Assembly (NCBI RefSeq): GCF_000003605.2
Contig: NW_003135342.1
Location: 319,387-353,827 of the forward strand
DNA: 34,441 bases
Direction: 5' to 3'
Source: Saccoglossus kowalevskii
Lineage: Eukaryota > Hemichordata > Enteropneusta > Harrimaniidae
Shown here: positions 4,498 to 31,327 of the stretch, piece after piece
Layout: each line of letters begins with the position of its first letter
Numbering within the stretch: position 1 is the stretch's first letter
The notes under the pieces: generated by a model
What the model was told of the DNA's origin: nothing
Database searches by the model: none
What the model saw: only the letters and a program-made list of their open reading frames with translations
Program-made: the position numbers and the translations under genes

Positions 4498-4868
4498 TTA
4501 TATTTGCCCATATGCCTTGTGTGAAAAAATGTATTTGCTCTCAATTGCCCCTAATTGTTCAGCCTCCCTGCTCACCCCAGCGCGCTCTTGTGTCTCTCCC
4601 TCCCTACTCCGTCTTTCGTTCTCTCGCTGTTCGGCCTCCCGTCTTTTTCTCTCGTTCTCCAATTGTTCAGCCTCCAGGCTCTTTCGCTCGTTCTCTTGCT
4701 GTTCCACTTCCATGCTTTTCCTTTCATACTCTTGCTGTTCTGCGTCTCGGTGTCTTCTCCGGTGATCACGACGCTTTGATAAGTAGAACAACACGAATGC
4801 GGCGATTGCGCATACGGGGACAACAACTCCAAACGTGACACCAATTATCATTTCCAGTCTCGCTTTAC
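4498..4868 (-). CDS. Last coding exon: transmembrane helix and repeat-rich cytoplasmic tail
   Basis: Phase-1 acceptor (TGCGTCGACAG) to a TAA stop at 4500-4498; residues 420-542. After GKARLE comes a membrane span (about 426-449, core GVVVPVCAIAAFVLFYL), then a basic stop-transfer run (SKRRDHRRRHR), giving a type I topology with the tail inside. Residues 463-522 are five tandem copies of a 12-residue unit, of which EQQENERKSLEA is typical; the last copy is degenerate. The alternating acidic and basic residues predict a charged stable helix. The protein ends AYGQI, where YGQI fits the Y-x-x-hydrophobic endocytic signal. I see no exact AATAAA on the minus strand in the 500 bases after the stop; a TATAAA variant lies at 4322-4317. 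Confidence 0.88.
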
Positions 4869-7800
4869 CTGTCGACGCACAAGTATAGAACACATGAGTA
4901 TGTCGATTTCTCTTAGAGTAAACACATGCACAGGCAATGAGCTTAAAGGGAGGTAGTCGTCGCTCCACACATGCGCGAGATATATGGGTCTCATATAAAC
5001 AAAGATGGCGACTTTGACTGTTACGCAGATCAACGAATACAAACTGAGATGTTATCAACCTGTAATTAGGTATTTGTAGGTGATTGGAAGGTATCGAAAG
5101 AGTCGCCGGCGGTAATTAGTGCAAGTCGCGCCCAGGGCAAACCTCATACTTGTGATTTCTATTAGAAGAGCGCATTGGATTGTGGGAAAATCAATGTTTA
5201 TCAACACAAATGTCGCACATGCGCAGCGCGACGACCACCACCCTTTAATAGTAAATGTAACGTTATAATTATCTCATTCATTACACTGATTCACCAAGAC
5301 AACATACATTCAGCAATGGACATTCACCACTGTATCACATTTCGTCAGACCCAACAAGTGAGATAGAAACAAGAGATAACAATATTTGGGAGAAAATATA
5401 TCAATATCTAAGCAGGTGACCATATTTTCAGAATTCATACATATGCATGTAAAGTGGGTCCATCAAGGGATATAACATAATCAATTCATAGATTCATAGA
5501 TTAGAAGAAATAAAATGGATTATATGGCTCACAGCAGTAAACATGAGAACCCGCAGGTGTACTGCATACATTGATAGCCTGTCAACACGGACTGGGCAGT
5601 ATGTACCTCACATGATGCGTGGGCAGGTCAGTGTCTCGCATTGGCACATGGCACCGTGTCACCTGTGACCGTGCCATTAGGACCGGTGGAAGTGTTAAAC
5701 TAATTTTGAGTAACATTTATTGATTAAATTTACACGACCCATATGGGTCATATTTCTGAACATTGTCAAATCAGGTCAAACGTCTTGAGTCGAGTGACAC
5801 GTAGTTTCGGTACACGCGACTACCTTTCAAAAAGACACTAGATAGACACAAATTTCGTACTTGGCTTGAATATGCACTTTGTCATGTTTTCTGACATTTG
5901 ACCGTCTCCAAGAGTCACGTGAAAGTGTGTATCCGTCATCCCTTGAATATAGTTCTACAATGACCACCTATCTAGTCTTGATTTCAATTCTGACTAAGTT
6001 GTAGTTTTGTACATGTATTAACACACGAGTTTAACCCCCGTTTCAGCGTGAGCCACTCGTTTAAATTTTTTTCTAACCACAGATCCAGGAAAATAATAAT
6101 ATTCTCCATTCTTTGCACTCGCTCTGATACATAGACGGATATGTTGCCATAGTTACTTCCTCTATTACTAAAGATGGAGTAAGGATGTTAGAATAGGTAG
6201 ACTGTCTTGTTTTGAGGTTGGAGGAGAATTGAGACATGGAAATTGAGAATTGAGTTTGAAAATAATCATTTATTTCTACCCAATAGATACACAATTACAA
6301 TTGCTTAACTGTAATTGCAAATCCAGGATTGTTTACCTCCAGGGCGTTTTTGAAGAAGTAAGCACTTCGTTTTATTTTTTTCGTTTCAATGGGTAGTATA
6401 AGAATTCACCGCTTGGACGATGACGGAGTGACTTGCTTGAAGCCGCTCTCGTACCTTATGCCGTTATATAGGCTATGGTGCTCCACAATGTGTGTACAAT
6501 TCCACAAAAAGCTCATTAATCTCTATTATTATGCCAGGCGACGTGAGTTACATACCCAATCGTTGCGTCATTGACTGTTTATCAATAACAGAAAGTAGAG
6601 CAGATTAAAAATAACATGTTATTTTAGAACCTCCCAAAAAACCCTTAAAATAGTTGTCAGATGCTTTATACAGCATCGTAAAATATTTCATTCAAAACGC
6701 ACGAAATACCCTTTGCCCCCTGTTATCTACGACATTAATCTTCTGCTGAGGCCTTTGACCGGGCAGGAAATGAGGTTAGTAAGCCAACGTGGGCAGAGTT
6801 TTAGTTTAATACGCACATATTCTTTATATGTTGTGTTTCGAGATTAGATCCTGTGTTATTTCTACAGGCATATCTCATCGTAGTATCGCTCACTCTTATA
6901 GAATAATATACGACTTCTATGACCTCTAAAGGTCACACATCCTGGTACTAATGTTGGTATGGAAATCGAAATTAATTCATTTTATAGATATTTCAGCACT
7001 TGACTATTTATTTTATCTACTTAAGTAAAATGTTTTTGTTAGGAAAAAAAAATAACACATTAAAAGTTACCCAAATTGTGTTTGTCTGACCTTTAGGGTC
7101 ACGAAAGTGGCCTATTATGCGACACTGTTTTGTGTGTAGGGGAGGTACTCCAGAAACTGAAAGATAAACGCGCAGTATTTTACGATTTACTGTGTTGTTG
7201 AATTCATAATTAGCCTCAAAGCATGGATACTGATTGTTAACAAATGAAAAATAATACTGGCATTCTTTAAAATACACCCTTAACCTAAAGGGTGGTGGTC
7301 GTCGCGCCGCGCAAGTGTGTTGATAAACATTGATTTCCCCCACAATCCAATGCGCTCATCTAATGAAATCACGAGTACGAGTTTTGACTTGGGCGCGACT
7401 CGCACTAATTACCGCCGGTGACTCTACCGATGCCTTCCAATCACCATTACCTAATTACCATTCGTAACGTCTCAGTTTGTAGTCGTTGGTCTGCGTAACA
7501 GTGGCAAAGTCGACATATTTGTTCATATGAGTTGCGCGACGGCCACTGCCCTTTAAAGTTCGAAATGATGCGACCAAATGAAAGGAACACACTCGTACTC
7601 CTAGCGTACATGCCTAGAAAGAAATGAGCAAGTCAATCGCTATTGACGATTTCAACCTCAGTGAAAACACGTCAGATAAATAAAACGCAAGAAGAGTCTT
7701 TAAATTTCACTCTAACATGAAAATAATATTAATACAAATATCATGCCGAGTAATGGGAATTTATAACAGAGATCCCACTGACATAATATAACGATCGGCT

Positions 7801-10800
7801 TATTAAATGAAAGTGCCAACAAAGATAAATTCCGAACGACTGATTTCGTAACAGTTTCATCAGGAAACGTGACGAGTCCAACAATATAACTGACTGTTCT
7901 GTACCATTCATGGCTTTCATGCGTTTCTCACTTTGAAAGAGGAATTTCAACAAAGAACTACGTGGGATAATAATTGTGGACACATGGTATAATGTAACAA
8001 TATTACTCAGCAAGTCAGATTACCCAACATCCCACTCGCACATCCGCTAACTAGTCATTCGGCCAGTCAGTCAAAAAAATAACACTGAATGCATGACAAG
8101 CTAAATACTATATTGAATGTATGTAAACTTGTACTGTGCGTGACTCGAACTACTGGCGGATCCAGAAATTCGGTAAGGGCGCGCGCTCATATTGACGTGG
8201 TCGGAGGCCGCGTCCTTGCACCTCCGGTGGGCTGGGTTTGTCAAATTGATTTGTCAATTTTTTTTTGCGGGCTGAAGGGGGAGTGGGCGCCGCGAACCGC
8301 CGCTCACGCACGGCACTAAATCACGGATGCTTGATAGCTGAGTTTATTACCACAGAGGGCATGAAATCTCAAATCGATCGTAGCCGACCGGGACGTTGGG
8401 CAAAGGTCGTCAGATCTGCCTTTCGCGAGCGTCGATTCGAGTCACACAAGTAGTACATTTTTACTTCTATTAACTATACGTAGTATAGCGGTGCGATGAT
8501 ATTCCCTTGTTTTACTTCCTATGTTGGCAGCTACTATGAGTTTACAGCCAGCCAATCAGTTAGTCAGGCAGTGAGGGCAAAATCAAACTAAAAAATCCTC
8601 TTTCAAGACTGACTAAAGTTACATGACCCATCGTGGATATCTATGGAGTGCGTTAATTCAACAATCGTTCGTATATGGGCTTTCTAGTAATATTACATCC
8701 ATGGCCAGTCAACACGCAAACAAAATATGTATATCCGTATGTAAATATATTGACGATGAAACAAAAACAAGCCTCAATGGTAGTTACAGTACCATCACGT
8801 GACACGTAACCTTATCAGCTACGCAGTACAAACAATATTTTATTAAAAAAAAATATAATAAAGAACAATAAAAGATTACAAAAAAAAACATTACCTAAAG
8901 GTATACAAAAAGTAGCATTGACATCTGACATATCTCCACAGTGGTCGAGACAATCAGTCGAAAGGTAAGGTACGATGCAGTGATCATTAGCACACTTGAA
9001 GTCTTTATCCTCGCATCTTCCATCCTCTGAAACATCAATCACAAACGCAACATTTATTAAAACGTGCTCGGGATAATGAAAGCACAACTCAATTCTAGGA
9101 GCAATGTTGAAGCAACTGTTAGCTTCGTATACACACAGCGTTTCAAGTTCACTGCGAGTAAGGTTCATGACAGTACTAATAATAGAACTTCTCAAGTCTT
9201 AATTAAGCACGCCTACTCTAATTAATAGCAGGAGTACTGTCTGCTAAGCATTCTTCTCCTTGAGTGTATTTACATTTTGCTTTTTGAATGCGAGCTGTAC
9301 AGTAGTAGCCAATCAGAGATCGCTCTGCATCACGCCGATGTTATTCTGTGCATACATACTTTTATCCATCGCCATGTGTGTTTAATCATGATTATTTTGC
9401 ATTCACGATTTGTCGGAACATACACTGCTATAGTATGTTTACTTTCTATGCTAAAAATAACTACTGTTTTTTTTAATTGTCAACCTTTAGATGACTTTAA
9501 AAAAACGCACAATGAAGAAGTTTTTATTGATGATGTATTTATCGATGGTGTATGAGAAGTGGCACTGGAAACGTCTAAGTGTGTACTCGCTGGTCAGTCA
9601 AAGTCGCCATCTTTGTTCACATGAGTCCCATATCTGGCGCATGCGTGGCGCGGCGACCACCGCACTTTAATCAAGTCGCTTTTAGACAAAATTGAATCTA
9701 AGATTTACACCAATCTCAACTATTACAGCGATATTCATATCTCCAAATCTATTACATACGGGCTATTGGTCGCTCGGATTTCACGGCTCAATTTCCAATT
9801 TGAAGTCTTAAAGGACACATGATAGGTTCAGCCAAATAGATTTGTAATTACATTACCTGCCATGTAATAAAGGGAGAATACTGCTTTGAAACCATTACTG
9901 CCTTCTGTTATGTTTTTAAGAGTTGACCTAAGTTCCAGAGACGAGGAGGCCATGAATGTTTTCTTCTCCACCCCATAGCAGGCACCTCCGAGAAGCTTAT
10001 TAGCTTCGAACAGCTGCACTTTCTCAAATTGATCGGTGCACGGATCAATAATACCTGAAAATACACGAGGAATACACCGAGATTCGATCAGGGTCAGTTT
10101 GGGACATGCATTTCCATTATAGTGAGATTTATAATTATCTGGGCGAGCGAACACGAGTGTTCGACAATGTCTCCCAGGACCAGGACCAACGAAGTAAGAA
10201 AATTGATTTTTATTTTTTTGAATCATCAAAATTACGTTGTCTTTAGGTAGTGACATGAACACATACGAGTGTTCGACAATGTCTCCAAAGACCAGGACCA
10301 ACGAAGTAAGAAAACTGATTTTTATTTTTTGAATCATCAAAATTACGCTGTCTTTAGGTAGTGACATGAATATGGCGTCTAATGAGTAAATGCACGGATT
10401 ACTTATCTCTCTGATATGAACATGTCTACGCTTAGACTAGTATCGATGTAAGTTGGTTGATAATTTCATTAAAGGATAATGCTGTTAGCTAATGCAATAA
10501 TATATCACCGTCTTAGCTTGACAATACAACGACAAAACATGCATGAGTATGTTCTACCTGATTTTCCCGCATATCATTTAATCCCATCGTCGTTTTTTTT
10601 TTTTTTACCTGAAACAACGTCCACTGCATCTATTGGGTACGGGTGAGTATCTTTCAACCAACAGTTGCCGTATTCCGTATCTCCCCTATTATTATCAAAG
10701 TCCCAAGCTTTGCAACCTTTGGTAGCCTTACATGACTGGCAACAGGATTCAGCACCTGCTGTTTTATAGTGATGCCCGTAGGTGATATCTCCACCTGGTC

Positions 10801-13800
10801 GACGAACACCAATCTCTATTACGCAGGTAATATCTGCGATACAAAATAGAAGAATAGGTATTACGAACGAAGAGCGCAAAGGGTGTCATTTTAAAAGATT
10901 TAAAGCGGCGGCAACATATTATCAATTGCTATTTCACCCATTCGATATGTTTTTACAAATTAACATATGTAAGATGGATCGATTTAGTATAAAATCGATC
11001 CAACAGAAAAAACACGCGAATGTTGGAATCGATCCCCGAATCACAACACTGATACTACTGATATTTAATACTTCTCTTTACCTGTTCGTTTTTCCGAAGA
11101 CATTATAACATCTAAAACCGTCAGTTGTATGCGATTGAACCTCTGAAGGGGGTCGATGGTGATCGAGCAGTTTGATTTCGGAGGTGATTGCGACTTCTCG
11201 TACCCGGCATGGGAAATTATCACTCCACCGTATGACTTTGTGGCCTCGTGATCTCCACACACTGTAATGAAAATATGCAAATAAATAAATTGCGTTTGGT
11301 GAATACGACACAATGAGACACACAGTTACCTTATGATATGTTTTAATGCTCGGATAAAAATATCAATACACATCCCTTAAAACGATAACCTCTGAGAACG
11401 CGTACTTGAAATTATTGAAGTTATGCTTCGTATGGGAAGGGGATGTGCGCACTTGTTCTTGTGGTTAATGCGACCACGTTCAAGGGTATGGTGGTTCTGC
11501 AGTGTTGTGATTTAAGTAAACCCGATTTTGCTATTTGTTTCTTTCGCTTGTTTTATGCGCCATGTATAAATTTTGATTTAATGAACTTAAGTGAACCATG
11601 TTAAGATCAGCCAACTTATTTGGTGTGGTCCCTCTACTGACTGAGCTAAGTGGGTGATTGGCGATGGAATCCAACAAGTGTGGTCCATGAGTATACACGT
11701 ATGTATCAAGTACACCGTGGATATCCGTTTGTTCTGCTCATTTTATCGCCACACTATCGTCACAAAAACAAAAAAACAGTTACATGACATACGCATGCAC
11801 GCAGTAAACAAGGTAAGAATATGTGGAGAATCCTACCGAAACTGATAACATTGAAAATAAAAAAGATTAAAACTTTAATAAACGTAGTACACATTTTTCT
11901 AAAAACAGTACGATTAATTTTGATGGGCACGTTAAATCCATATATTTATGCCTCTTTTTGTTTATGCAGATTTAAAAATTTGTATTCCATTTAAATTCAT
12001 ATGTTCATGGCAGAATTTGGTTCGTCGAAAAAAAACAAACTGTTAAACAAACTACCTGCTTTCTACTTGGTTTCTACAGATAACTTTACATAACTCGTGA
12101 AATGTCATTGTATAATAATTTACTTATATATAAGGTCATTGACCCATATAATCCAATATAAGGGCGGTGGTCGTCATTCAGCGTTTGCTCGGATTTCATG
12201 TAAACAATGTATTTTACACGCGTTGTGTACATCGCTATGAGTCCCATATCGAACAGGACGCGGCGCGACGACCACCGCCCTTTAATGAATACAGCGATAA
12301 TAAGAAATACTAATATATTTACAGTAAGTCTGATATCTCATGCCTAAGATAAGCAGCTAATAGTTTTAAGATTACACCATCCTGTGTTTTCATTAACTGG
12401 ATGAATTAGTCAACAGATGGTTGATCATAAAAGAAGCGAAGAGGGAGATTCAATGTGCAAAGCCCGTTTAAAATTGGCAAATTAAGACAACATAGAATTC
12501 GTCTTTAGTTTGGTTGGAATTGATCGAAGTGTGCGTAAGAAAATGATTTTTACAGTGAGAAATTTTCAGGTACAACTGACGTTTTAAAATCTAGAGAATT
12601 CATATGTCGTATTCATAATGCAAATATGTTTTAGATCATTCAGAGAAAAATATCCATGAATATATTAATAATACTAATTTCTTGGGAATTTCAGACTTGG
12701 TATTGATCAAATGTATTAGCAAATGCTTCATATTCGCTACACGCGTAATTTGAGCCCAGACTCTTCTTTTATACTTACGAGGATAATACTAGTCACTCGT
12801 ATTTCATACAAAGTGTTTTCGCCGCAGTATAAAAAGCAAATTGAATATCTCCAACATTAATATTACATAGTTGTTCGGTAATCTGGGATATGCCAAAAAT
12901 GTCTGCATTTTTTAAACTTAGTATATTTCGATTCTTTCCAGTATGTTAATATTGGTGGTACCTCTCGGATTTAGATAAATGTCCGCCATTTTGAAATTTT
13001 GAAATCATTCATTCATTCTCCACGTGTCACAATATACATTTATAACATTCAATGAACGTTTGAATCCAATGCCTGTGTATGAAAACATGACAACAACATC
13101 TGCAATTCGCAAATTTGTTCAAGCCCCCCTTGGTCAAATTGCAATGTAGTAAGTTGATAAATAGTTTTTTGTCAACTATTGAAAAAAGTTGACCAAGGAG
13201 CGGGGTTTGACTTTAGTGGGTAGCGCCTCTAGCGACTGAAGATTTTTGAAATCCGATGAAGGTTTTCGCCAAATATGTTCATTAGAATGATCGTTTCGTG
13301 TCTTTTCGATGTGGTATGCATCGAATTACCAATCAGCAAATGGTAGACTTTGTTTCTATAGTAACAGGGTTGTTTCATATCTCAAAATTGCGTTCGGTTA
13401 CATGTAGTGAGAGTGTTATGTGTAGTTATACGATGAGTACGTATGGTTGTCACGGGTTACTAGAAAATGCTAATGAATATTAAGCCTTGTTTATGAAATA
13501 ATGCTTTATCATGGATGCCTGTAATACCGTTCTAAAACATGTTCATTTTTTTTATTTCCAAAGTTTTTTTTCATACACACGAAATACATATGTATCAAAT
13601 TCGAGAACTAGTCAAGGCAATTCATTGACTCGACCTTGAACAATTAATACTATATTTTCGGTGATTATAGGAGGATTGTCGTCGATTCTGCTGCTACAAT
13701 ACACATTATTGTTGATATATGTACAGATTACTCGGAATCAGTAAAGAAAAATCAATATATTGTTATAATAAGGAGGGACCATGCTTTCATAAAAAGGGTG

Positions 13801-16800
13801 ATTCCAGTGTCCATTTACTATATATGCCCGGAAATCCCCGGCTACTGAATTTAATTACTACTGCATAGACATGACGGTGCCTCTCGACAGTAGATAATGC
13901 AGTACTAGTCAGTTTAGTAAACGCAAGTATTAAATTAGTATTTCCAGTACGAAGAATGTCGCTTCATTGTGTTCTAATTTATCTTTTCATTTTCTAAATC
14001 TGACAAGTTAGGCCGATTTGTAGGAATTTGAATCGATGTTTTGCGACAGTGTCTGTTTACATTTATTGAGAATAATACGATTGTATGCACGGCATTGGAA
14101 AATACGTAGTTTTCAGATTCATAAATTGGCCTGATCGTATGGAAAATACGTAGTTTTCAGATTCATAAATTGGCCTGATCGTATTATTTAAGCCCCGTTT
14201 TATTTGCATAAAAAATCTCAAAGAATAATTGAAAATAATTCGTTTTTAGAAAATGATAGCAGTCGAATAAGAACACGACCCAGTCATACATACCGTAGTA
14301 TTCCTTCCTTGTTGCATCGTAACTTCCGTCATCAGGAACTCTCTCAACAAATGCTTTGAATCCCGTTTTTTCTTCCGATCCGTCTGTTAAAAAGTTCATT
14401 GTCATTCTGTTGCCGCTTGTTACGATGTTATCGGGCGCTTTTTGCCCACAGTAAACACCTAAATCAAAAGAATATTGATCGCCATCTTTGATGAAAAGTC
14501 CGTCGTTCTGACAATTAGGAGAGTCTTCGATATCGAACTCCTCAAATTGAAGCTGCAAATAAAAATCCAGATATTTTAATTAAAAAATAATAAAATATCT
14601 TTAATTGATATATCGACCTACATAATCGATACACATCGCGAATTGTCCTAGTGACGCAGATCCATCTTATGAAAGAGCGTTAATGGCAACTGTCAAACTC
14701 AGCTTCCCGAAGTTTGAACTTTCACAGTATATCCTGGATTAATTTCATTCACTCACATACCAGCTTTTATTTGACCTAATCCGGCAGTGATTGCATTTAC
14801 CGTAGTTGCTTTCAGTCTACAATTGCACAAATGCTAATCAGATTAGTAAACGATCCACCCACGAACACTCCGCCAGTTAATGCTAAAAGTGTGCCTTTTG
14901 GATAAAAGACCGCAAAGAGACGAACATCTTTATTTATCACAAAAAGCAATGAACACTGACAGTTTGGTTTGAGCTCCCAACAATTTAAATTCAAATATCA
15001 GGGTGACACAACGCGACATTCATCGGGATCTTGCTTGATTATTTAGATTTTCTCCAACTGTCACAAATACGTTTTATCACCAGGATTTCTAGCATATATT
15101 CCTGAGATTTACTATATGTAAATTTCTCGTCAAGTAATACGATATTGCGTCTATGTTAATAATTAGTGTTCATGCATATATTTACTTAGTTAATGCATGC
15201 ACATAAGCAGTTCATGTGCATACCTAATTATTTAATATACATGTACATACATAATTTATTCTTACTGTGCATACGTAATTAGTTATTGTGCATACGTAAT
15301 TAGTTATTGTGCATACGTAAATAATTATTGCAAATATGTGATTAATCAGCATGTATACGTAGTGTTGTACAATTAGTGTTTGTGCATACGTAATTAATGA
15401 TTGTACATAAGTAGTTAACAATTCCGAGTCTGCATACGTATTTAGTTTTGTGTATGCGCAAATAATTATTGTGGATAAGTTACCGAGATTGTTAGTGTGT
15501 ATACGTATTTAGTTAATGGGCATAGGTGATTAAATACTGTGCCACACGTAATTTGTCAATGTGCACACGTAATTAGTTAATGTGCATACGTAACTAGTTA
15601 TTATTCTGCCCAATAAACACAATCTGTTTCGTAGACCAAGATAGGAGAACATATTTTGATGGATCGCTGAAATAAATAGCTTAATAATATTTATAATTCG
15701 ATGCACCATACCATTATAAGGTATCCTTCATCGGTGTATATGTTATAGTTGCACTGATCGTAGATGTTGTATTCTGCCGGGTGGTTTGGCGAGACGATCG
15801 TCAGGCTTTCATCGCTGACATAAGTGGGCCCTTCGTCACAGATCACTGCAATGATTAAACAAATACAATGCATCGGAAGAAGTGTCTCACCGAAGTAATC
15901 ATTTGGAAGTTTCAATTAATAGACATGGGACTAGAAGGCCACGGTTGGGTTAGCCTAGCATGATTGATTTTTACACGTCCCCCCCCCCGCACAAAACGGG
16001 ACTAAATAAAAACTCATACTCACACGCACGCACACATACATACTGCAAACTCAATTCGACCCGATTTGTAATAGTACGCTGCTATTACCAGAGCTTTTCA
16101 CTACCCCTGAAGGATATGATGTACTTTGTTTAACTGTTTTTCCATATACAATTATGCTAAAATAAAAAAAAAGTGGATTATCTTACCGACGCCTTCATTG
16201 TCGGTGGTGGTTCTTTCTACTACAAAGGAAATGGAGAAATAAAGCTATTGTTAGGCAGTCACTCGTAAAAAAAATCTTTCTGGTAAGTCGCGCCCTCTGG
16301 CGATGGAGATTTTCTGTGACGTAATTAGGTCATAGAAAGGCCTTCCACATCGTCGATATTGTTGAAAATAATATTTGTGGGAGATTTACTATACTTGTAA
16401 TTTAAATTCCGAACGAACGCACACCCAAAGACATTTTGACGTCACCGAGCGTCACGTCTCACCAGGAAAAAAATGTATTACGCGATTCAATGAAAGAAAT
16501 CATATATCAAATAAACTTTCATTACATTAACATTGTAAAAATATTTGGTATGAGGTAAATCATCATTATATTGAAGAGATTTTGTAGCAAAACTTGGATT
16601 TGAATTGGATTTGCGTCGTGACATTCTATGTGTCGTCCAATCCGTTATATATTTATCATGTCATCGAGCTCTTCATTTGAAAACAAAAATTGTTTGGCGT
16701 GGTGATTTAGACTCAACTTGAAAATTATTCATCTCACCTGTTACTTCTATTCCGGCAGCTCGGGTGACACCAATTTCTACTAAAAAAGTAAACAGATAGA

Positions 16801-28800: not shown

Positions 28801-31327
28801 GTACCATGCATGACGTCATATGATTGAATACAGAGAATTGCTTATATTACTTATTAATGAGCGTTCCCCTTTTGAATTATTTGCATCGCTGATGAGCCTA
28901 AATTCACTGGGTGTGTAGCGTGAATGCAAATCATAGATGCATTACCTGATCGGTGTCAATAGGTCAACATCGATATTAAAGTCTCAGTAAAGCCCCCCCC
29001 CCCCCACTCAAGCTATATCACGTCACGTCCTCTCGTTTGTCAGTATAAATCCTGTCGTGTTTTGCACGACGGCCCTGGCGATGATTTATTTCCGGTTTTC
29101 CCTGAAAACTAAAAAGCTATACACGAGACATCATTACACAGAACACTAGGCAAATGAGATCAAGCACCATGCAACAAAACAAAATAAAACTGGGTCACGT
29201 AGCCCTTTCATCTACTGACAAGATATTTTACTTTTCTAGATTGTTTTACACTTCAAATTAATAGCACACAACATACCAAACAAACCATGGGTATAATTAA
29301 CAGTGTTTTTTTTTAATTCACACTCTCAGAGATTATTATCGAAATAGTTTCAATCACCGTCCCTCAAAAGTGTTGAGGGACGGTGTTTCAATCTAGAACG
29401 CGTGGCGCGAACTTGAATGCGGAACGCGTTGCACGGCCATGGAAGGATTTTTAATACGTTTATCACGAAAACGAGTAAAACAAAAACACACACACACAAA
29501 AAATAGCAAATTCTGTCTTCAGGAGTAAGATCAAGTAGTATGTGTTTTCAGTGGCATTGAAAAAATCCCGACCTTGAGATCCGATATTATGTTGACACCC
29601 GCGGCGAGCCATCGAAGAAATATATACACTCCGTCATTATCCGTCGAAACGCGCTCTTTGTTTGGTTCACAGCAAACTGTTAACATCAAACTAATCAATA
29701 CGATGCATAATTGTACTTTCATCACCGTACAAAGCACATCAATGGTAATAATTCAATTTCCTCATTATACACAAAATTACTCAGTAACCAAATACATCAC
29801 TGACATTTTGGAACAGATCGGAATGCGATGAGAGACTATGAAGAGAGTGTGTAGAAGGAGGGGTGTATTGATCGGAAGGCGATGAAAGATTAAGAAGGGG
29901 GTGTACAGAAGGAGGGGTGTATTGATCGGAAGGCGATGAAAGATTAAGAATGGGGTGTACAGAAGGGGTGTAATGATCGGAGGGCGATGAGAGACTAGGA
30001 ATGTGGTGTAAAACGAAAGGCTTCTACTGAAAGAACGAAGGATTTCTATGTATGTAATTGATTGTAATACTACGACCTGGAATTATTAAACAATGTCAAC
30101 AGCCGTCATTTCCACTCCAATGTGGCGAGTCATACAATCGGGGCAATTTACATATAACAACATTGAATCAATTTTCAAACAACTCTAATCACCTTGTGCG
30201 GTGTCGAACATCCGGGTATGTGCCAATGGCTTGGAGAAGAATAGTGGGCGTGAATATCTGGGGCGCAGTTTTTACTGGTAATGTTTTAGATCTTGAGGTT
30301 GCAAAGAGGATTACAATCCAAATCCCTTGTCGGTTGAAAATGGATGATGCTTAAGGGGTACTTAGAGAAAACCGATACCTCGCTCCACCGTGACGGAGTT
30401 ATCAGATTCGGGATTTTTTTATTTGTTCTATGGGTACTGCGCACGGGCTACGGCGCACGAATTCTGAGATCTCGCGACTGACGGTTTATCGTCGCTGTCA
30501 CTGCATTCGCCACATGATTGCGTGGCACTGCATATGCAATGTGATGTGGCAGTGGATAATTTCCGGAACAATACGTGTGCCCTGTTACCGTCAGTTGATC
30601 CGGGCACAGTTTCGAGTGACACAAATACTCGCCACCTCTGGGCCGCTCTCCATGATTGTCACATCTGTCGACATATTTTGGTTTCAAACAAAAAACTGTG
30701 CAAAGAAAAAATGTGAAATTCGCTTCCCAGAAATAAAAAAAAAATGATAAATACAATTAATTAAAATATATACAACGTTGAATAAATAAATACAAATAAA
30801 GAGAAACAGTATCAAACAAATAATTATCGTCATTCTTCCAATAAATCAAACGCATTCTTTCGATGTCATTCATGTTTAAGTCTCTATAGCAACCACAATC
30901 TGACACTAACGACTTAAAATGAAATCATCATACCCGACCGTGCAGACGCGATACTCCGCAGCATAATACTTCGTTTAATTTTATAATAAAAACAAATCTT
31001 TCGCGTCAAAGAAACGTCTTAGTATGAACGCTTCGTGGTCTTTCAAGGTATACAGAGGAAAGGTGTAGTTATGAACAACAACAAACAAACAAACAAACAA
31101 ACAAACAAAAACAGTCTTACTAGCGAAGATTAATGTATATGGCACGGTAAAACTGAGGAAAACATGTCCAGGGTGAGAAATAATTTGTGACCACCCCTAT
31201 CCCAATCGTTTCGATCTACCTTTCACTTGAAGAGTAACAATGGATAGTTTAGTGGCAAAAACGCTTTCTTACCTGCACATTGAAATGGCAAAGCAATGAC
31301 CAAAAGCATATAATACGTCTCCATCAT
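4498..31327 (-). CDS. Ten-exon gene for a NETO-like CUB-CUB(PAN)-LDLa single-pass membrane protein (whole gene span)
   Basis: Assembled by hand from ten minus-strand exons: 31327-31273, 16779-16738, 16219-16187, 15845-15712, 14552-14294, 11261-11082, 10833-10609, 10054-9857, 9026-8895 and 4868-4498. Each has a GT donor, an AG acceptor and a compatible phase; coding length without stop is 1626 nt, or 542 residues. Domain order: signal peptide (1-18), short linker (19-43), CUB1 (about 46-165), CUB2 (about 176-372) interrupted by PAN (235-309), LDLa (379-416), membrane span (426-449), tail (450-542). Known: NETO proteins have signal-CUB-CUB-LDLa-TM order at about 530 residues and modulate ionotropic glutamate receptors. 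Inferred: a type I surface protein of this architecture; orthology to NETO is not shown and the tail does not look like theirs. Other CUB/LDLa receptors remain possible. I may have missed exons in the 14.5-kb first intron. Confidence 0.82.
4561..4740 (-). repeat. Coding 36-bp tandem repeat (5 units) in the cytoplasmic tail
   Basis: Five 36-bp units read on the minus strand give five 12-residue units that start Glu-Gln or Glu-Thr and end Glu-Ala, Glu-Val or Glu-Gly. The first four are close copies (ENERK or similar core); the fifth (ETQERAGVSREA) has diverged. The unit is a multiple of three, so copy-number change would lengthen or shorten the tail without a frameshift. Confidence 0.9.
4944..5247. 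mobile_element. MITE family A, copy A1 (long form)
   Basis: Starts TAAAGGGAGGTAGTCGTCGC and ends with the complementary GCGCGACGACCACCACCCTT. The interior shares blocks with A2, A5 and A6: the AAAGATGGCGACTTTGACTG block, a GGTAATTAGTG block and a GCGCATTGGATTGTGGGAAA block. No transposase frame. It lies about 75 bp upstream of the acceptor of the last receptor exon. Confidence 0.88.
6143..6156. promoter_or_regulatory. RFX X-box-like motif
   Basis: GTTGCCATAGTTAC: perfect left half and an acceptable right half (TAGTTAC). In the LDLa-TM intron. Confidence 0.35.
7286..7555. mobile_element. MITE family A, copy A2 (long form, inverted relative to A1)
   Basis: Starts TAAAGGGTGGTGGTCGTCGC and ends GCGCGACGGCCACTGCCCTT. 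The interior blocks appear in reverse order relative to A1 (TTTCCCCCACAATCCAATGC near the left end), so it is inserted in the opposite orientation. The YY1-like block is degraded (AAGTCGACATATTTG). Confidence 0.85.
8153..8330. mobile_element. Possible remnant of a GGCGGATCC-type repeat, region 2
   Basis: A GC-rich island in AT-rich intron sequence starting CTGGCGGATCCAGAAATT, with GTCCTTGCACCTCCGGTGGG and a GGGGGAGTGGGCGCCGC block. The head resembles that of the region at 3989. Short open frames here are not supported as genes. Confidence 0.3.
8895..9026 (-). CDS. LDL-receptor class A module
   Basis: A 132-nt phase 1-1 exon, acceptor TGATGTTTCAG, donor G|GTAATG, residues 376-419. Six cysteines follow the LDLa spacing: GRCEDKDFKCANDHCIVP, then STDCLDHCGDMSDVNATFC. 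LDLa repeats are small calcium-stabilised modules. Here the usual Asp-x-Ser-Asp-Glu ends Asp-Met-Ser-Asp-Val, so one acidic calcium ligand is missing and binding may be weak. An N-glycosylation sequon (NAT) lies in the last loop. Its place after two CUB domains and before the membrane span is the NETO-type order. Confidence 0.92.
   Translation of the reverse strand, partial: RMEDARIKTSSVLMITASYLTFRLIVSTTVEICQMSMLLFVYL
9580..9669. mobile_element. MITE family A, copy A3 (one half only)
   Basis: Only one arm is present: GTACTCGCTGG, AAAGTCGCCATCTTTGTTCA, then GGCGCATGCGTGGCGCGGCG and a terminal CCACCGCACTTTAA. The other half is missing, by deletion or recombination. Located in the CUB2b-LDLa intron, 187 bp upstream of the CUB2b donor's downstream side. 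Confidence 0.8.
9857..10054 (-). CDS. CUB2 domain, second half
   Basis: A 198-nt phase 1-1 exon, acceptor TTTTCAG, donor G|GTAATG. Residues 310-375 begin GIIDPCTDQFEKVQLF and carry the third and fourth CUB cysteines (DPCTD and GACYG), an N-glycosylation sequon in KNITEG, and the closing NGFKAVFSLYY strand. The Cys-x-Asp pattern and the GF-x-A-x-F ending are CUB hallmarks. The frame remains open upstream to 10367, but that part is a tandem duplication in the intron and is separated by a good acceptor. Confidence 0.88.
10153..10371. repeat. Tandem duplication, 112-bp unit, two copies
   Basis: ACGAGTGTTCGACAATGTCT begins at 10153 and again at 10265. The two 112-bp copies differ at few positions (CCAGGACC versus AAAGACC, one T in a T-run, ACGTTG versus ACGCTG). 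It lies in the intron between the PAN and CUB2b exons, about 100 bp upstream of the CUB2b acceptor. The open frame across it is an artefact. Confidence 0.93.
10609..10833 (-). CDS. PAN/apple-type module, symmetric exon nested in CUB2
   Basis: A 225-nt phase 1-1 exon, acceptor TTTTGTATCGCAG, donor G|GTAAAA preceded by VVS. Residues 235-309 include EIGVRRPGGDITYG, the paired cysteines ESCCQSC, the GCKAW motif and GNCWLKD, which is the cysteine pattern of short PAN (PAN_4-like) domains that bind protein or carbohydrate. It lies between the two halves of CUB2. Because it is a whole number of codons flanked by phase-1 introns, it can be included (PAN inserted into a CUB loop) or skipped (normal CUB2). 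An alternative in-frame acceptor, TAATAG, would start the exon at 10815 and remove six residues including one cysteine. Confidence 0.88.
11082..11261 (-). CDS. CUB2 domain, first half
   Basis: A 180-nt phase 1-1 exon, acceptor TTTCATTACAG, donor G|GTAAAG. Residues 175-234 begin VCGDHEATKSYGGVIISH and hold the first two CUB cysteines (CGDH and KSNCSITI), an N-glycosylation sequon at NCS, and the strand NRIQLTVLDV. It ends KRT plus a split codon, just before the loop that should carry the third CUB cysteine. On its own it is half a CUB domain; the complement is the exon at 10054-9857, with the PAN exon lying between the two in the genome. Confidence 0.9.
12159..12284. mobile_element. MITE family A, copy A4 (short 126-bp form)
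   Basis: Termini TAAGGGCGGTGGTCGTC and GACGACCACCGCCCTTTA are near-perfect inverted repeats around a short core containing TCATGTAAACAATGTATTTT and TGAGTCCCATATCGAA. Same termini as the long form but a different interior, so it is a separate subfamily. Confidence 0.88.
13120..13209. repeat. Fold-back inverted repeat, about 90 bp
   Basis: CAAGCCCCCCTTGGTCAA at 13120-13137 pairs with TTGACCAAGGAGCGGGGTTT at 13189-13208 (CCTTGGTCAA is exact, with a small bulge beyond it). A smaller palindrome (AGTTGATAAATAG and CAACTATT) lies inside. Likely the relic of a small fold-back element. Confidence 0.7.
13352..13365. promoter_or_regulatory. RFX X-box-like motif
   Basis: GTTTCTATAGTAAC fits the GTYNCCATRGYAAC-type consensus except for one T. 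In the CUB1-CUB2 intron. Confidence 0.3.
14097..14184. repeat. Tandem duplication, 44-bp unit, two identical copies
   Basis: GGAAAATACGTAGTTTTCAG through TGATCGTAT occurs at 14097 and again at 14141 with no differences, so the duplication is recent. It lies about 110 bp downstream of the CUB1b donor. Confidence 0.95.
14294..14552 (-). CDS. CUB1 domain, second half, plus linker
   Basis: A 259-nt exon, phase 0 in and phase 1 out, acceptor TTTATTTGCAG, donor G|GTATGT. It encodes residues 89-174: LQFEEFDIED, then the third CUB cysteine (PNCQND), the fourth in VYCGQK, and the closing GFKAFV strand. The acidic residues in EEFD and after the third cysteine lie where calcium-binding CUB domains place theirs, so CUB1 may bind calcium. 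After the CUB fold comes a polar linker rich in Asp, Tyr and Arg (VPDDGSYDATRKEYY) leading to CUB2. This is the clearest domain in the window. Confidence 0.93.
14553..15711. other. Intron inside CUB1
   Basis: Contains the 21-bp minisatellite. A short stretch at 14760-14815 reads ESNYGKCNHC on the minus strand and vaguely recalls the end of the PAN module, but its phase does not fit the flanking exons. Confidence 0.65.
15170..15605. repeat. Degenerate minisatellite, unit about 21 bp
   Basis: Around twenty units of the type GTGCATACGTAATTAGTTAT. Two adjacent perfect units lie near 15270-15312 and the array decays outwards in both directions. It sits inside the intron that splits CUB1. Its minus-strand frame gives a repeated YVCTITN peptide, which is a by-product of the repeat. 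Confidence 0.92.
15712..15845 (-). CDS. CUB1 domain, first half
   Basis: A 134-nt exon, phase 1 in and phase 0 out, with acceptor CATTGCAG and donor ATG|GTATGG. It covers residues 44-88 and carries the first two CUB cysteines (in VICDEG and DQCNYN), the typical SPNHPAEY turn between them, and the strand GYLIM at its end. It joins directly to the next exon (LQFEEFD) to give an unbroken CUB core. CUB domains are extracellular beta-sandwiches used for protein binding. The reading frame stays open upstream of the acceptor (from 15915), but that extra peptide lies before the splice site. Confidence 0.9.
16187..16219 (-). CDS. Mini-exon B (33 nt): Thr/Asp/Glu linker before CUB1
   Basis: A 33-nt phase 1-1 exon with acceptor CCTTTGTAG and donor G|GTAAG. 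It encodes VERTTTDNEGV, a hydrophilic threonine- and acid-rich linker that would sit just before the first cysteine of CUB1. Like mini-exon A its acceptor is a TAGTAG tandem, so two isoforms differing by one residue are possible. Skipping it keeps the frame. It has no domain signature of its own; splice-site quality and phase are the only evidence. Confidence 0.55.
16738..16779 (-). CDS. Mini-exon A (42 nt): PAN-start-like linker
   Basis: A 42-nt phase 1-1 exon with a polypyrimidine acceptor (TTTTTTAG) and a GTGAG donor. It encodes VEIGVTRAAGIEVT plus a shared glycine/valine codon. Its EIGV..R..G....G pattern matches the start of the PAN exon at 10833 (EIGVRRPGGDITYG) at 7 of 14 positions, and the DNA around the two acceptors is also alike. 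The rest of a PAN module does not follow, so this looks like a remnant or split copy now serving as an N-terminal linker. The acceptor is a tandem TAGTAG, which would allow gain or loss of one residue. It is very short, so its use as an exon needs transcript support. Confidence 0.55.
17303..17499. mobile_element. MITE family C, copy C1
   Basis: Begins TACTGTAAAAGCATTG and ends CAATGCATTTACAGTA, an inverted repeat of about 16 bp. Shared interior with C2: TTTAATTTCACTA, GGAAACAAT, TGTAAAACGATTTATT and CCCAGTGAATAAT. No open frame. First intron of the receptor. Confidence 0.75.
18266..18279. promoter_or_regulatory. RFX X-box-like motif
   Basis: ATCACCATAGCAAC fits the GTYNCCATRGYAAC-type consensus except for the first base. 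In the first intron. Confidence 0.3.
19211..19500. mobile_element. Inverted-repeat element D (290 bp)
   Basis: The left arm CTGCGAGATTTCACGTAATG continues GCGTGAAA; the right arm TTTCACGCATAACGCGAGAT continues CTCGCAAT. They match over about 27 bp with a few mismatches. A related single arm, CGCATAACGTGAGAT, lies at 20674-20688. Interior about 230 bp, non-coding. Confidence 0.65.
19621..19899. mobile_element. MITE family A, copy A5 (long form, left end eroded)
   Basis: The right end GGCGCGACGACCACCGCCCT is intact; the left end TAAAGGGACG is followed by a deletion of the rest of the inverted repeat. The interior matches A6, with AAAGATGGCGACTTCGACTG and GCGCATTGGATTATGGGAAA. In the receptor's first intron. 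Confidence 0.85.
21417..21972. mobile_element. Possible inverted-repeat element E (556 bp)
   Basis: ACATTCTTTTACTGGG at 21417-21432 and CCCAGTAAAAAGAATGT at 21956-21972 are inverted repeats differing by one T. The 520 bp between them has no long frame. With a single copy in the window and short ends, this could also be chance or an old solo element. Confidence 0.45.
22727..23015. mobile_element. MITE family A, copy A6 (best preserved long form, 289 bp)
   Basis: Termini TAAAGGGCGGTGGTCGTCGC and GCGACGACCACCGCTCTTTA. The left arm continues with CGCATGCGCGAGACATGG and AAAGATGGCGACTTTGACTG; the right arm has GCGCATTGGATTGTGGGAAA and TTTATCAACACAAATGTCGC. This copy makes a suitable reference for the long subfamily. 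Open frames read through it are artefacts. Confidence 0.9.
23452..23960 (+). other. Two adjacent unexplained open frames
   Basis: Frames of 80 codons (23452-23694) and 79 codons (23721-23960) follow each other 26 bases apart on the plus strand, immediately to the right of MITE A6. The second is basic (many Arg and Lys). I recognise no domain, signal or splice pattern, and the spacing suits neither an intron nor a eukaryotic operon. Probably chance in the intron of the receptor, but this is the densest non-receptor open sequence in the window. Confidence 0.12.
24442..24850 (+). pseudogene. Possible decayed coding fragment
   Basis: In plus-strand frames short protein-like stretches appear between stops: WVEMARQIRSNSPMRSVCRD followed by PEAAKLRNRLGENYS near 24466-24570, and ILAKVWLKIDDKKKAARTLG flanked by in-frame stops near 24692-24751. 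The Ala/Lys/Leu pattern resembles helical repeat proteins, but I cannot assign a family. Stops and frame change suggest a broken retrocopy or chance. Confidence 0.15.
25095..25118. repeat. (AT)n microsatellite
   Basis: Twelve AT units in the first intron. Confidence 0.95.
26087..26218. mobile_element. MITE family A, copy A7 (short form, inverted relative to A4)
   Basis: Termini TTAAAGGGCGGTAGTCGTCG and CGCGACGACCACCGCGTTTT. The core is the reverse complement of A4 (TTCGATATGGGACTCATAGC and AAAATACATTGTTTATTTAC). The two short copies share nearly the whole 126-132 bp, which shows a distinct recently mobile subfamily. Confidence 0.88.
28520..28727. mobile_element. MITE family C, copy C2
   Basis: Begins TACTGTAAAACGATTTATTT and ends CCAGTGAATAATTAATG followed by TTTTTACAGTA. 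Shares terminal and interior blocks with C1 about 11 kb away, though internal order and length differ slightly. A TA dinucleotide flanks each end, compatible with a TA target duplication. Confidence 0.75.
29347..29393. repeat. Perfect 13-bp hairpin flanked by a 9-bp direct repeat
   Basis: CACCGTCCCTCAA (29355-29367), five-base loop AAGTG, TTGAGGGACGGTG (29373-29385). The hairpin is bracketed by GTTTCAATC at 29347-29355 and 29385-29393, overlapping the stem by one base on each side. The pattern looks like a small insertion with a target-site duplication. Confidence 0.85.
29531..29722 (-). CDS. Candidate small secreted peptide (63 aa) or alternative first exon
   Basis: An open frame starting MKVQLCIVLISLMLTVCC, which reads as a signal peptide, followed by a 45-residue hydrophilic-then-mixed segment to a stop at 29531. 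A longer in-frame start lies at 29737. It falls inside the first intron of the receptor on the same strand. I do not recognise the mature part and see no good phase-1 donor that would splice it to the receptor exons. It could be a real small gene, an alternative signal exon or chance. Confidence 0.25.
   Translation of the reverse strand: MKVQLCIVLISLMLTVCCEPNKERVSTDNDGVYIFLRWLAAGVNIISDLKVGIFSMPLKTHTT
29816..30010. repeat. Minisatellite, 54-bp unit, about 3.6 copies
   Basis: Units begin GATCGGAAGGCGATGAAAGA and end AGGGGTGTATT. Copies start at 29816, near 29870, near 29924 and near 29975; the third is three bases shorter. First intron of the receptor. Confidence 0.93.
30448..30735 (-). other. 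Candidate cysteine-containing exon in the first intron
   Basis: On the minus strand a pyrimidine-rich acceptor (TTTTTTCTTTGCACAG) is followed in phase 1 by an open frame with regularly spaced cysteines: CLKPKYVDRCDN, EYLCHSKLC and HTYCSGNYP. The local GC content is higher than the flanking AT-rich sequence. Phase 1 entry matches the receptor's exon style and the position is just after the signal exon, but no convincing phase-1 donor follows and I recognise no domain. It could be a missed exon, an exon of another gene or chance. Confidence 0.22.
31073..31112. repeat. (ACAA)n microsatellite
   Basis: About nine uninterrupted ACAA units with short imperfect ends, just downstream of the signal exon in the first intron. 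Confidence 0.95.

What the first reader, a model, noticed from the sequence alone, without database searches (positions are those of the whole stretch)
9857..11261. A PAN module encoded by a skippable exon nested inside a CUB domain
Seen: the exon at 11082-11261 carries the first half of a CUB domain (cysteines 1 and 2) and the exon at 9857-10054 the second half (cysteines 3 and 4). Between them lies a complete 75-codon PAN exon. All three are phase 1-1. Known: phase 1-1 exons are the currency of extracellular exon shuffling, usually between domains rather than inside one. Inferred: the transcript either makes a CUB2 with PAN bulging from the loop before the third cysteine, or skips PAN and makes a normal CUB2. 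That would be a splice switch that changes a binding domain from within.
Basis: partly seen in the sequence, partly recalled or inferred. Interest (0 to 1): 0.85.

Follow-up and report, generated by a model that had tools for sequence, protein, structure and literature searches.

The report
PAN module nested inside CUB domain
An animal cell-surface receptor gene carries a whole small protein module (PAN) on its own exon inside the coding region of another module (CUB), where sister genes of the same genome have the same break but no PAN; whether cells can leave the exon out is not known.

Summary
The anatomy is confirmed. On the minus strand lies a receptor gene: CUB1, CUB2, LDLa, transmembrane segment, tail of about 90 residues. 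CUB2 is split between exons 11082-11261 (Cys1, Cys2) and 9857-10054 (Cys3, Cys4), with a complete 75-codon PAN_4 exon (10609-10833) between them; all three are phase 1-1. CUB2 alone misses Pfam's CUB model, but aligned with three sister genes it matches a CUB profile (hhalign E 4.9e-07), and it aligns end to end with a sister CUB2 (BLASTP 2e-13, two sequences). New here: six sister places in the same genome carry CUB2 broken before Cys3. In five the intron reads phase 1 at both ends; in the sixth only the donor was established. None of the six has PAN there. So PAN most likely entered an existing intron inside CUB2 on this gene's branch. The CUB2-with-PAN protein is probably made. Skipping would be in frame, but there are no transcript data, and PAN's splice sites are as strong as its neighbours', so constitutive inclusion is at least as likely as a switch. 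The kind is known (domain insertion through exon shuffling, as the integrin alpha-I domain, recalled). My limited open-access search found no PAN-in-CUB case.

The parts
15712..15845 (-). exon CUB1a, first half of CUB1 (phase 1-0)
   Evidence: CUB1 joined: Pfam CUB 1.7e-26
14294..14552 (-). exon CUB1b, second half of CUB1 (phase 0-1)
   Evidence: also C2723:333738-333947
11082..11261 (-). exon CUB2a, first half of CUB2 with Cys1 and Cys2 (phase 1-1)
   Evidence: joined halves 0 of 1000 shuffles; sister exons
10834..11081 (-). intron CUB2a to PAN, 248 nt
10609..10833 (-). PAN exon, 75 codons, six cysteines (phase 1-1)
   Evidence: Pfam PAN_4 9.3e-12; 12-row PAN alignment from this genome; model
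10055..10608 (-). intron PAN to CUB2b, 554 nt, holding a tandem duplication of about 111 nt
9857..10054 (-). exon CUB2b, second half of CUB2 with Cys3 and Cys4 (phase 1-1)
8895..9026 (-). exon LDLa (phase 1-1), weak Pfam match
   Evidence: Pfam Ldl_recept_a 0.0088, below its cut-off; tblastn matches to sister LDLa exons
4498..4868 (-). last exon: transmembrane segment (by eye) and E/R-rich tail, stop 4498-4500
   Evidence: translation, 123 residues; stop codon

Best explanation
This is a gene of a CUB/LDLa transmembrane receptor family. In this genome the family has a phase-1 intron inside CUB2, shortly before the third cysteine (shown at both ends in the window gene and five sisters). In the window gene a symmetrical (1-1) PAN exon has entered that intron (inferred from the sisters). 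The transcript joins CUB2a-PAN-CUB2b in frame (shown at the DNA level only). PAN brings six cysteines of its own and CUB2 keeps its four, so each can pair within itself, and PAN would stand out from the CUB2 loop before Cys3 (inferred). I think inclusion is the rule in at least some tissues. Skipping would give the sister-type CUB2 and is possible but unproven.
For: Exons, phases and splice sites. PAN identity. CUB2 identity (the C136 sister's CUB2 by itself 0 of 150 shuffles). Continuity of CUB2 across the junction: BLASTP 2e-13 to the C136 sister over 127 columns, 29% identity. Intron site: residues from Cys2 to the junction 28, 28, 28, 26, 23, 25 and from the junction to Cys3 6, 2, 2, 4, 2, 2 in window, C136, C2787, C1091, C2971-A, C2971-B, all phase 1. 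No PAN match in six of six sister introns (best E 0.63, against 3.3e-28 for the window). PAN is intact although its relatives in the genome found are at most 47% identical, which argues that selection keeps it.
Against: No transcript, no orthologue from another species, no fold of the joined protein. CUB2 of the window alone is below Pfam's threshold and not significant in hhalign. The first half taken alone is weak: 6 of 300 half-shuffles reach the score, and PAN placed before CUB2b in its stead scores 27.5 against 29.2. With PAN present my simple aligner does not place PAN as one clean insertion. The gain is inferred without an outgroup; loss in the sisters cannot be excluded. The sixth sister (C3582) could not be checked at its acceptor. 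The PAN model's matches to apple domains have weak E-values (2.6 to 8.5).
Confidence: 0.72

Rival explanations
1. PAN is a cassette exon: some transcripts skip it and make a plain CUB2, others include it, so the gene changes a binding domain from within.
For: Skipping is in frame and leaves the four CUB cysteines; sister genes show that a PAN-less CUB2 exists; [quoted passage not shown]
Against: PAN's splice sites are not weaker than its neighbours' (donor score 7.8 against 7.9 and 7.4, pyrimidine fraction 0.81 against 0.75 and 0.75; weights recalled). The Cys2-Cys3 stretch left by skipping would be 34, against 25 to 30 in five sisters, though a longer loop need not harm. No RNA data.
Confidence: 0.35
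2. PAN is a dead exon: it lies in the intron but is normally not used, and the protein has a plain CUB2.
For: None of the six sister introns has it; no transcript is known.
Against: Open frame, PAN signature residues, acceptor and donor intact although its relatives differ at more than half of their residues.
Confidence: 0.08
3. PAN was present in the ancestral gene and lost in the other members.
For: A single loss suffices if the tree is rooted on the window gene; no rooted tree was made.
Against: One of seven members has PAN; other roots need several losses. Among the four members compared, C1091 and not the window is the most distant (17, 20 and 26% identity).
Confidence: 0.15
4. The two halves are not one CUB; they are unrelated exons around PAN.
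For: No Pfam CUB match for the joined halves; no BLASTP match to CUB1.
Against: End-to-end homology to a sister CUB2, profile match of the family, shuffle tests, one of four members at Pfam CUB 0.0012.
Confidence: 0.03

Closest known systems
NETO1/NETO2, Drosophila Neto, C. elegans SOL-2 (CUB-CUB-LDLa transmembrane proteins)
   Same: Order CUB, CUB, LDLa, transmembrane segment (their layout from passages of PMC9083331).
   Different: PAN inside CUB2; E/R-rich tail of about 90 residues; divergent CUB2; weak LDLa. Orthology not tested.
LEV-10 and CULD (other CUB/LDLa proteins)
   Same: CUB, LDLa, one transmembrane segment (CULD from passages of PMC4732287; LEV-10's layout recalled). The C136 and C2787 sisters show more than two CUB exon sets.
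   Different: CULD is described with one CUB; no PAN in the passages seen.
Integrin alpha-I domain inserted in the beta-propeller (recalled)
   Same: A whole extracellular domain nested inside another domain of a receptor.
   Different: Other domains; a constant part of its subunits, as far as I recall.
PAN/apple modules, PAN_4 (PF14295)
   Same: Cysteine and W/F pattern shared with 11 relatives in this genome.
   Different: Here nested in another domain.
Neuropilin-2 second CUB (PDB 2qqk)
   Same: Extra residues in the same loop before the third cysteine (alignments).
   Different: Six residues, not a module.

Membership tests
CUB domain (CUB2) | match to the Pfam CUB model over its cut-off | tested here: not met
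   no match up to E 1; one of four family members at 0.0012
CUB domain (CUB2) | four cysteines in CUB order and CUB sequence profile | tested here: met
   against: window sequence alone not significant in hhalign
CUB domain (CUB2) | CUB fold | not tested
   the joined exons are not contiguous DNA, so I did not hand them to structure prediction
PAN_4 | Pfam match over cut-off | tested here: met
   45.2 bits against 27
PAN_4 | PAN/apple fold | tested here: inconclusive
   mean pLDDT 67.8, strand-helix-strand-strand; apple domains among 42 hits, E 2.6 or worse
LDLa | Pfam match over cut-off | tested here: not met
   16.7 bits against 24.1; the C136 sister exon meets it with 39.5 bits
NETO family | CUB-CUB-LDLa-TM order | tested here: met
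   CUB2 and LDLa divergent, TM by eye
NETO family | PDZ-binding end of the tail; nearest relative by phylogeny | not tested
   tail ends ...KAYGQI; no animal protein database on hand
Exon-shuffled domain insertion | symmetrical exon in an intron that relatives have without it | tested here: met
Cassette exon | transcripts with and without the exon | not testable with these tools
   no RNA data

The most novel reading that the evidence does not exclude
A receptor gene gained a PAN module inside its CUB2 ligand loop by insertion into an existing intron, and regulated splicing toggles the module, so one gene makes an ancestral-type and a nested-type binding domain.
Probability: 0.3. Interest if true: 0.75.

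Novelty: new variant of a known kind. Interest (0 to 1): 0.48.

Why it matters
Exon shuffling is usually shown between domains. Here the host domain, the guest exon and sister introns without it stand in one genome, so the step from plain to nested domain can be read directly. One survey (PMC2926785, passages) puts likely domain insertions into introns below 10% of the domain gains it studied in animals; the passages seen do not single out insertions inside a folded domain. If splicing really toggles PAN, it would be a natural on/off test of what a nested module does to CUB binding, in proteins laid out like NETO and SOL-2, which act on synaptic receptors (passages of PMC9083331).

Tried and rejected
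PDB sequence searches with joined CUB2 and PAN gave nothing useful. BLASTP of CUB1 against CUB2 found nothing. hhalign of the window's CUB2 alone against the CUB profile was not significant (E 0.14; with PAN 0.092); only the four-gene alignment was. An hmmsearch of the PDB with the four-gene alignment gave two hits, both MASP chains with CUBs, but at E 0.35 and 0.41. A 38-residue open stretch beside and overlapping the end of the PAN exon in another frame scored 11.5 bits with the PAN profile (E 0.029, 0.0029); I judged it chance. Pfam scans of the minus strand, stops as X: three frames of about 16.0-31.0 kb gave none; 2.0-16.0 kb was scanned in one frame only and gave PAN alone. The plus strand was only listed as open frames. 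Other PAN-in-CUB cases were sought only by eye, comparing the 13 PAN places with the 150 scored CUB places (of 402 candidates): none lie side by side except in the window. The genome-wide PAN_4 family search did not complete. A repeat-mediated origin of the PAN exon was not supported by flanking inverted repeats (none in 9800-11300).

Full report
The gene. The window is C2723:319387-353827 of an unnamed 572-Mb genome. On its minus strand seven exons can be joined in frame: CUB1a 15845-15712, CUB1b 14552-14294, CUB2a 11261-11082, PAN 10833-10609, CUB2b 10054-9857, LDLa 9026-8895, and 4868-4498 with a transmembrane segment (by eye), a charged tail of about 90 residues and the stop. CUB1 is plain (Pfam 1.7e-26). 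The LDLa match is weak (0.0088, below its cut-off). The 5' end was not settled; a possible signal-peptide exon lies at 29.5-29.75 kb.

The observation. PAN is beyond doubt by sequence: PAN_4 45.2 bits against a cut-off of 27, and 11 of the 12 other PAN places that one search found at E up to 1, aligned with it, share C30, C40, W43, F45 and C57 (the twelfth, L026, was not used). CUB2 needed proof: Pfam gives no match, BLASTP to CUB1 none, hhalign of the window's CUB2 alone E 0.14. Against a profile of 8 CUB domains from the PDB the joined halves score 29.2 bits; 1000 shuffles have mean 7.5, s.d. 4.8, maximum 25.6, and none reaches 29.2. With cysteines held in place 0 of 150 do. Shuffling only the first half reaches the score in 6 of 300, only the second in 1 of 300; a random 66-residue window frame after CUB2a in 2 of 200, a random 60-residue frame before CUB2b in 4 of 200; PAN before CUB2b scores 27.5, CUB2a before PAN 12.0, the halves in reverse order -1.5. 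So the proof from this gene alone is good for the whole, fair for the second half and modest for the first.

The sister genes. A search of the whole genome with joined CUB2 found, besides the window, a place on C136 (E 0.0127) and one on C3582 (E 2.84). The C136 locus has CUB1b, CUB2a, CUB2b, LDLa, transmembrane and proline-rich tail exons in order. Its CUB2 aligns with the window's over the whole length, across the junction (37 of 127 identical, 2e-13 for two sequences). Fourteen further stretches of about 10 kb (thirteen chosen from the CUB places, one the neighbour of C136) held CUB2 exons in two, C2787 and C1091 (E up to 0.05; details). A search with the C136 CUB2 added C3582 and two places on C2971 about 37 kb apart, which I count as two. 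An LDLa match lies downstream in five of the six; the second C2971 place showed none in the stretch fetched, and its first half is partly masked. In C136, C2787, C1091, C2971-A and C2971-B the intron inside CUB2 reads phase 1 at both ends; in C3582 the donor is phase 1, but its acceptor was not established and Cys3 may be missing. Residues from Cys2 to the junction are 28, 28, 28, 26, 23, 25, and from the junction to Cys3 6, 2, 2, 4, 2, 2, in window, C136, C2787, C1091, C2971-A, C2971-B. None of the six sister introns holds a PAN match (best E 0.63; window 3.3e-28). With window, C136, C2787 and C1091 aligned, CUB2 matches the CUB profile at E 4.9e-07, probability 92.5, over 101 columns; each member alone was mostly silent in Pfam, one of four reaching CUB at 0.0012.

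What this means. Either the intron inside CUB2 is older than PAN's presence in it, or PAN was lost elsewhere. With one of seven members carrying PAN, gain on the window's branch is the simpler reading. No outgroup was available, and a root on the window branch would allow one loss. The stretch from Cys2 to Cys3 is 34 in the window with PAN left out, and 25, 27, 30, 30, 30 in the five sisters; the window also has the longest run from junction to Cys3, 6 against 2 to 4. These may be linker residues beside PAN, but the sisters vary too.

How it probably works. PAN has six cysteines and CUB2 four, so both can close their disulfides whether or not PAN is there. The site is the loop before Cys3, where Neuropilin-2's second CUB also has extra residues. 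From recall, this loop lies near the calcium and ligand site of many CUBs. CUB1 here keeps acidic residues of that site; CUB2 seems to have lost some (by eye). So CUB2 with PAN may be a CUB whose ligand loop carries a second binding module. That is inference.

Skippable or not. Leaving PAN out is in frame, but so is leaving out CUB2a, CUB2b or LDLa. PAN's donor scores 7.8, its neighbours 7.9 and 7.4, and its acceptor has the highest pyrimidine fraction of the six measured (weights recalled). Nothing in the DNA marks it as a weak cassette exon. In primates new exons are often alternatively spliced (abstract in a listing, PMC2592719). I put the switch at about one in three.

Structure. The PAN exon with 11 relatives gave a model with mean pLDDT 67.8. 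Among its 42 PDB matches are apple-domain proteins (prekallikrein and plasma kallikrein, TgMIC4 apple-5, NK1 of HGF, and the lectin SML-2, apple by recall), all with E above 2. This agrees with PAN but proves little.

Literature. In the held open-access library 'PAN domain' with 'CUB domain' gave one paper, on a yeast sensor (listing only); with 'exon shuffling' none; the other term sets showed nothing on PAN in CUB in their listings. Most subscription papers are not held, and no animal protein database was on hand, so absence from print is not shown. I saw passages of PMC2926785, PMC9083331 and PMC4732287; the rest as listings.

Noticed in passing
window 10153-10370: Two tandem copies of a stretch of about 111 nt, 94-95% identical, in the intron between PAN and CUB2b.
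   Followed up: no
window near 12160-12290, 9620-9670, 7300-7560, 5050-5250: Repeated short element with ends like GGGCGGTGGTCGTCGCGC, perhaps a MITE; seen by eye.
   Followed up: no
window 29534-29752 (-): Possible first exon with a signal peptide (MKVQLCIVLISLMLTVCC...); not joined to the rest.
   Followed up: no
window about 16738-16776 and 16186-16219 (-): Two tiny possible phase-1 exons upstream of CUB1; the first reads EIGVTRAAGIEVTG, like the start of the PAN exon (IEIGVRRPGGDITYG). By eye, may be chance.
   Followed up: no
G000:C3233:136650-144356 (-): One open frame of 2656 codons holds 16 of the 150 scored CUB places: a long intronless CUB array.
   Followed up: no
L013 (G000:C136), about 4720-5140 (-): The C136 sister has a proline- and tyrosine-rich repeat tail ending PPPMYDDVVKNPSPM, unlike the window's E/R-rich tail.
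   Followed up: no
L050 (G000:C3582), about 8780-9320 (-): CUB1b region with several repeats of one short stretch (SFDTESCCDEVYVYDGS), perhaps an assembly or tandem-repeat effect.
   Followed up: no
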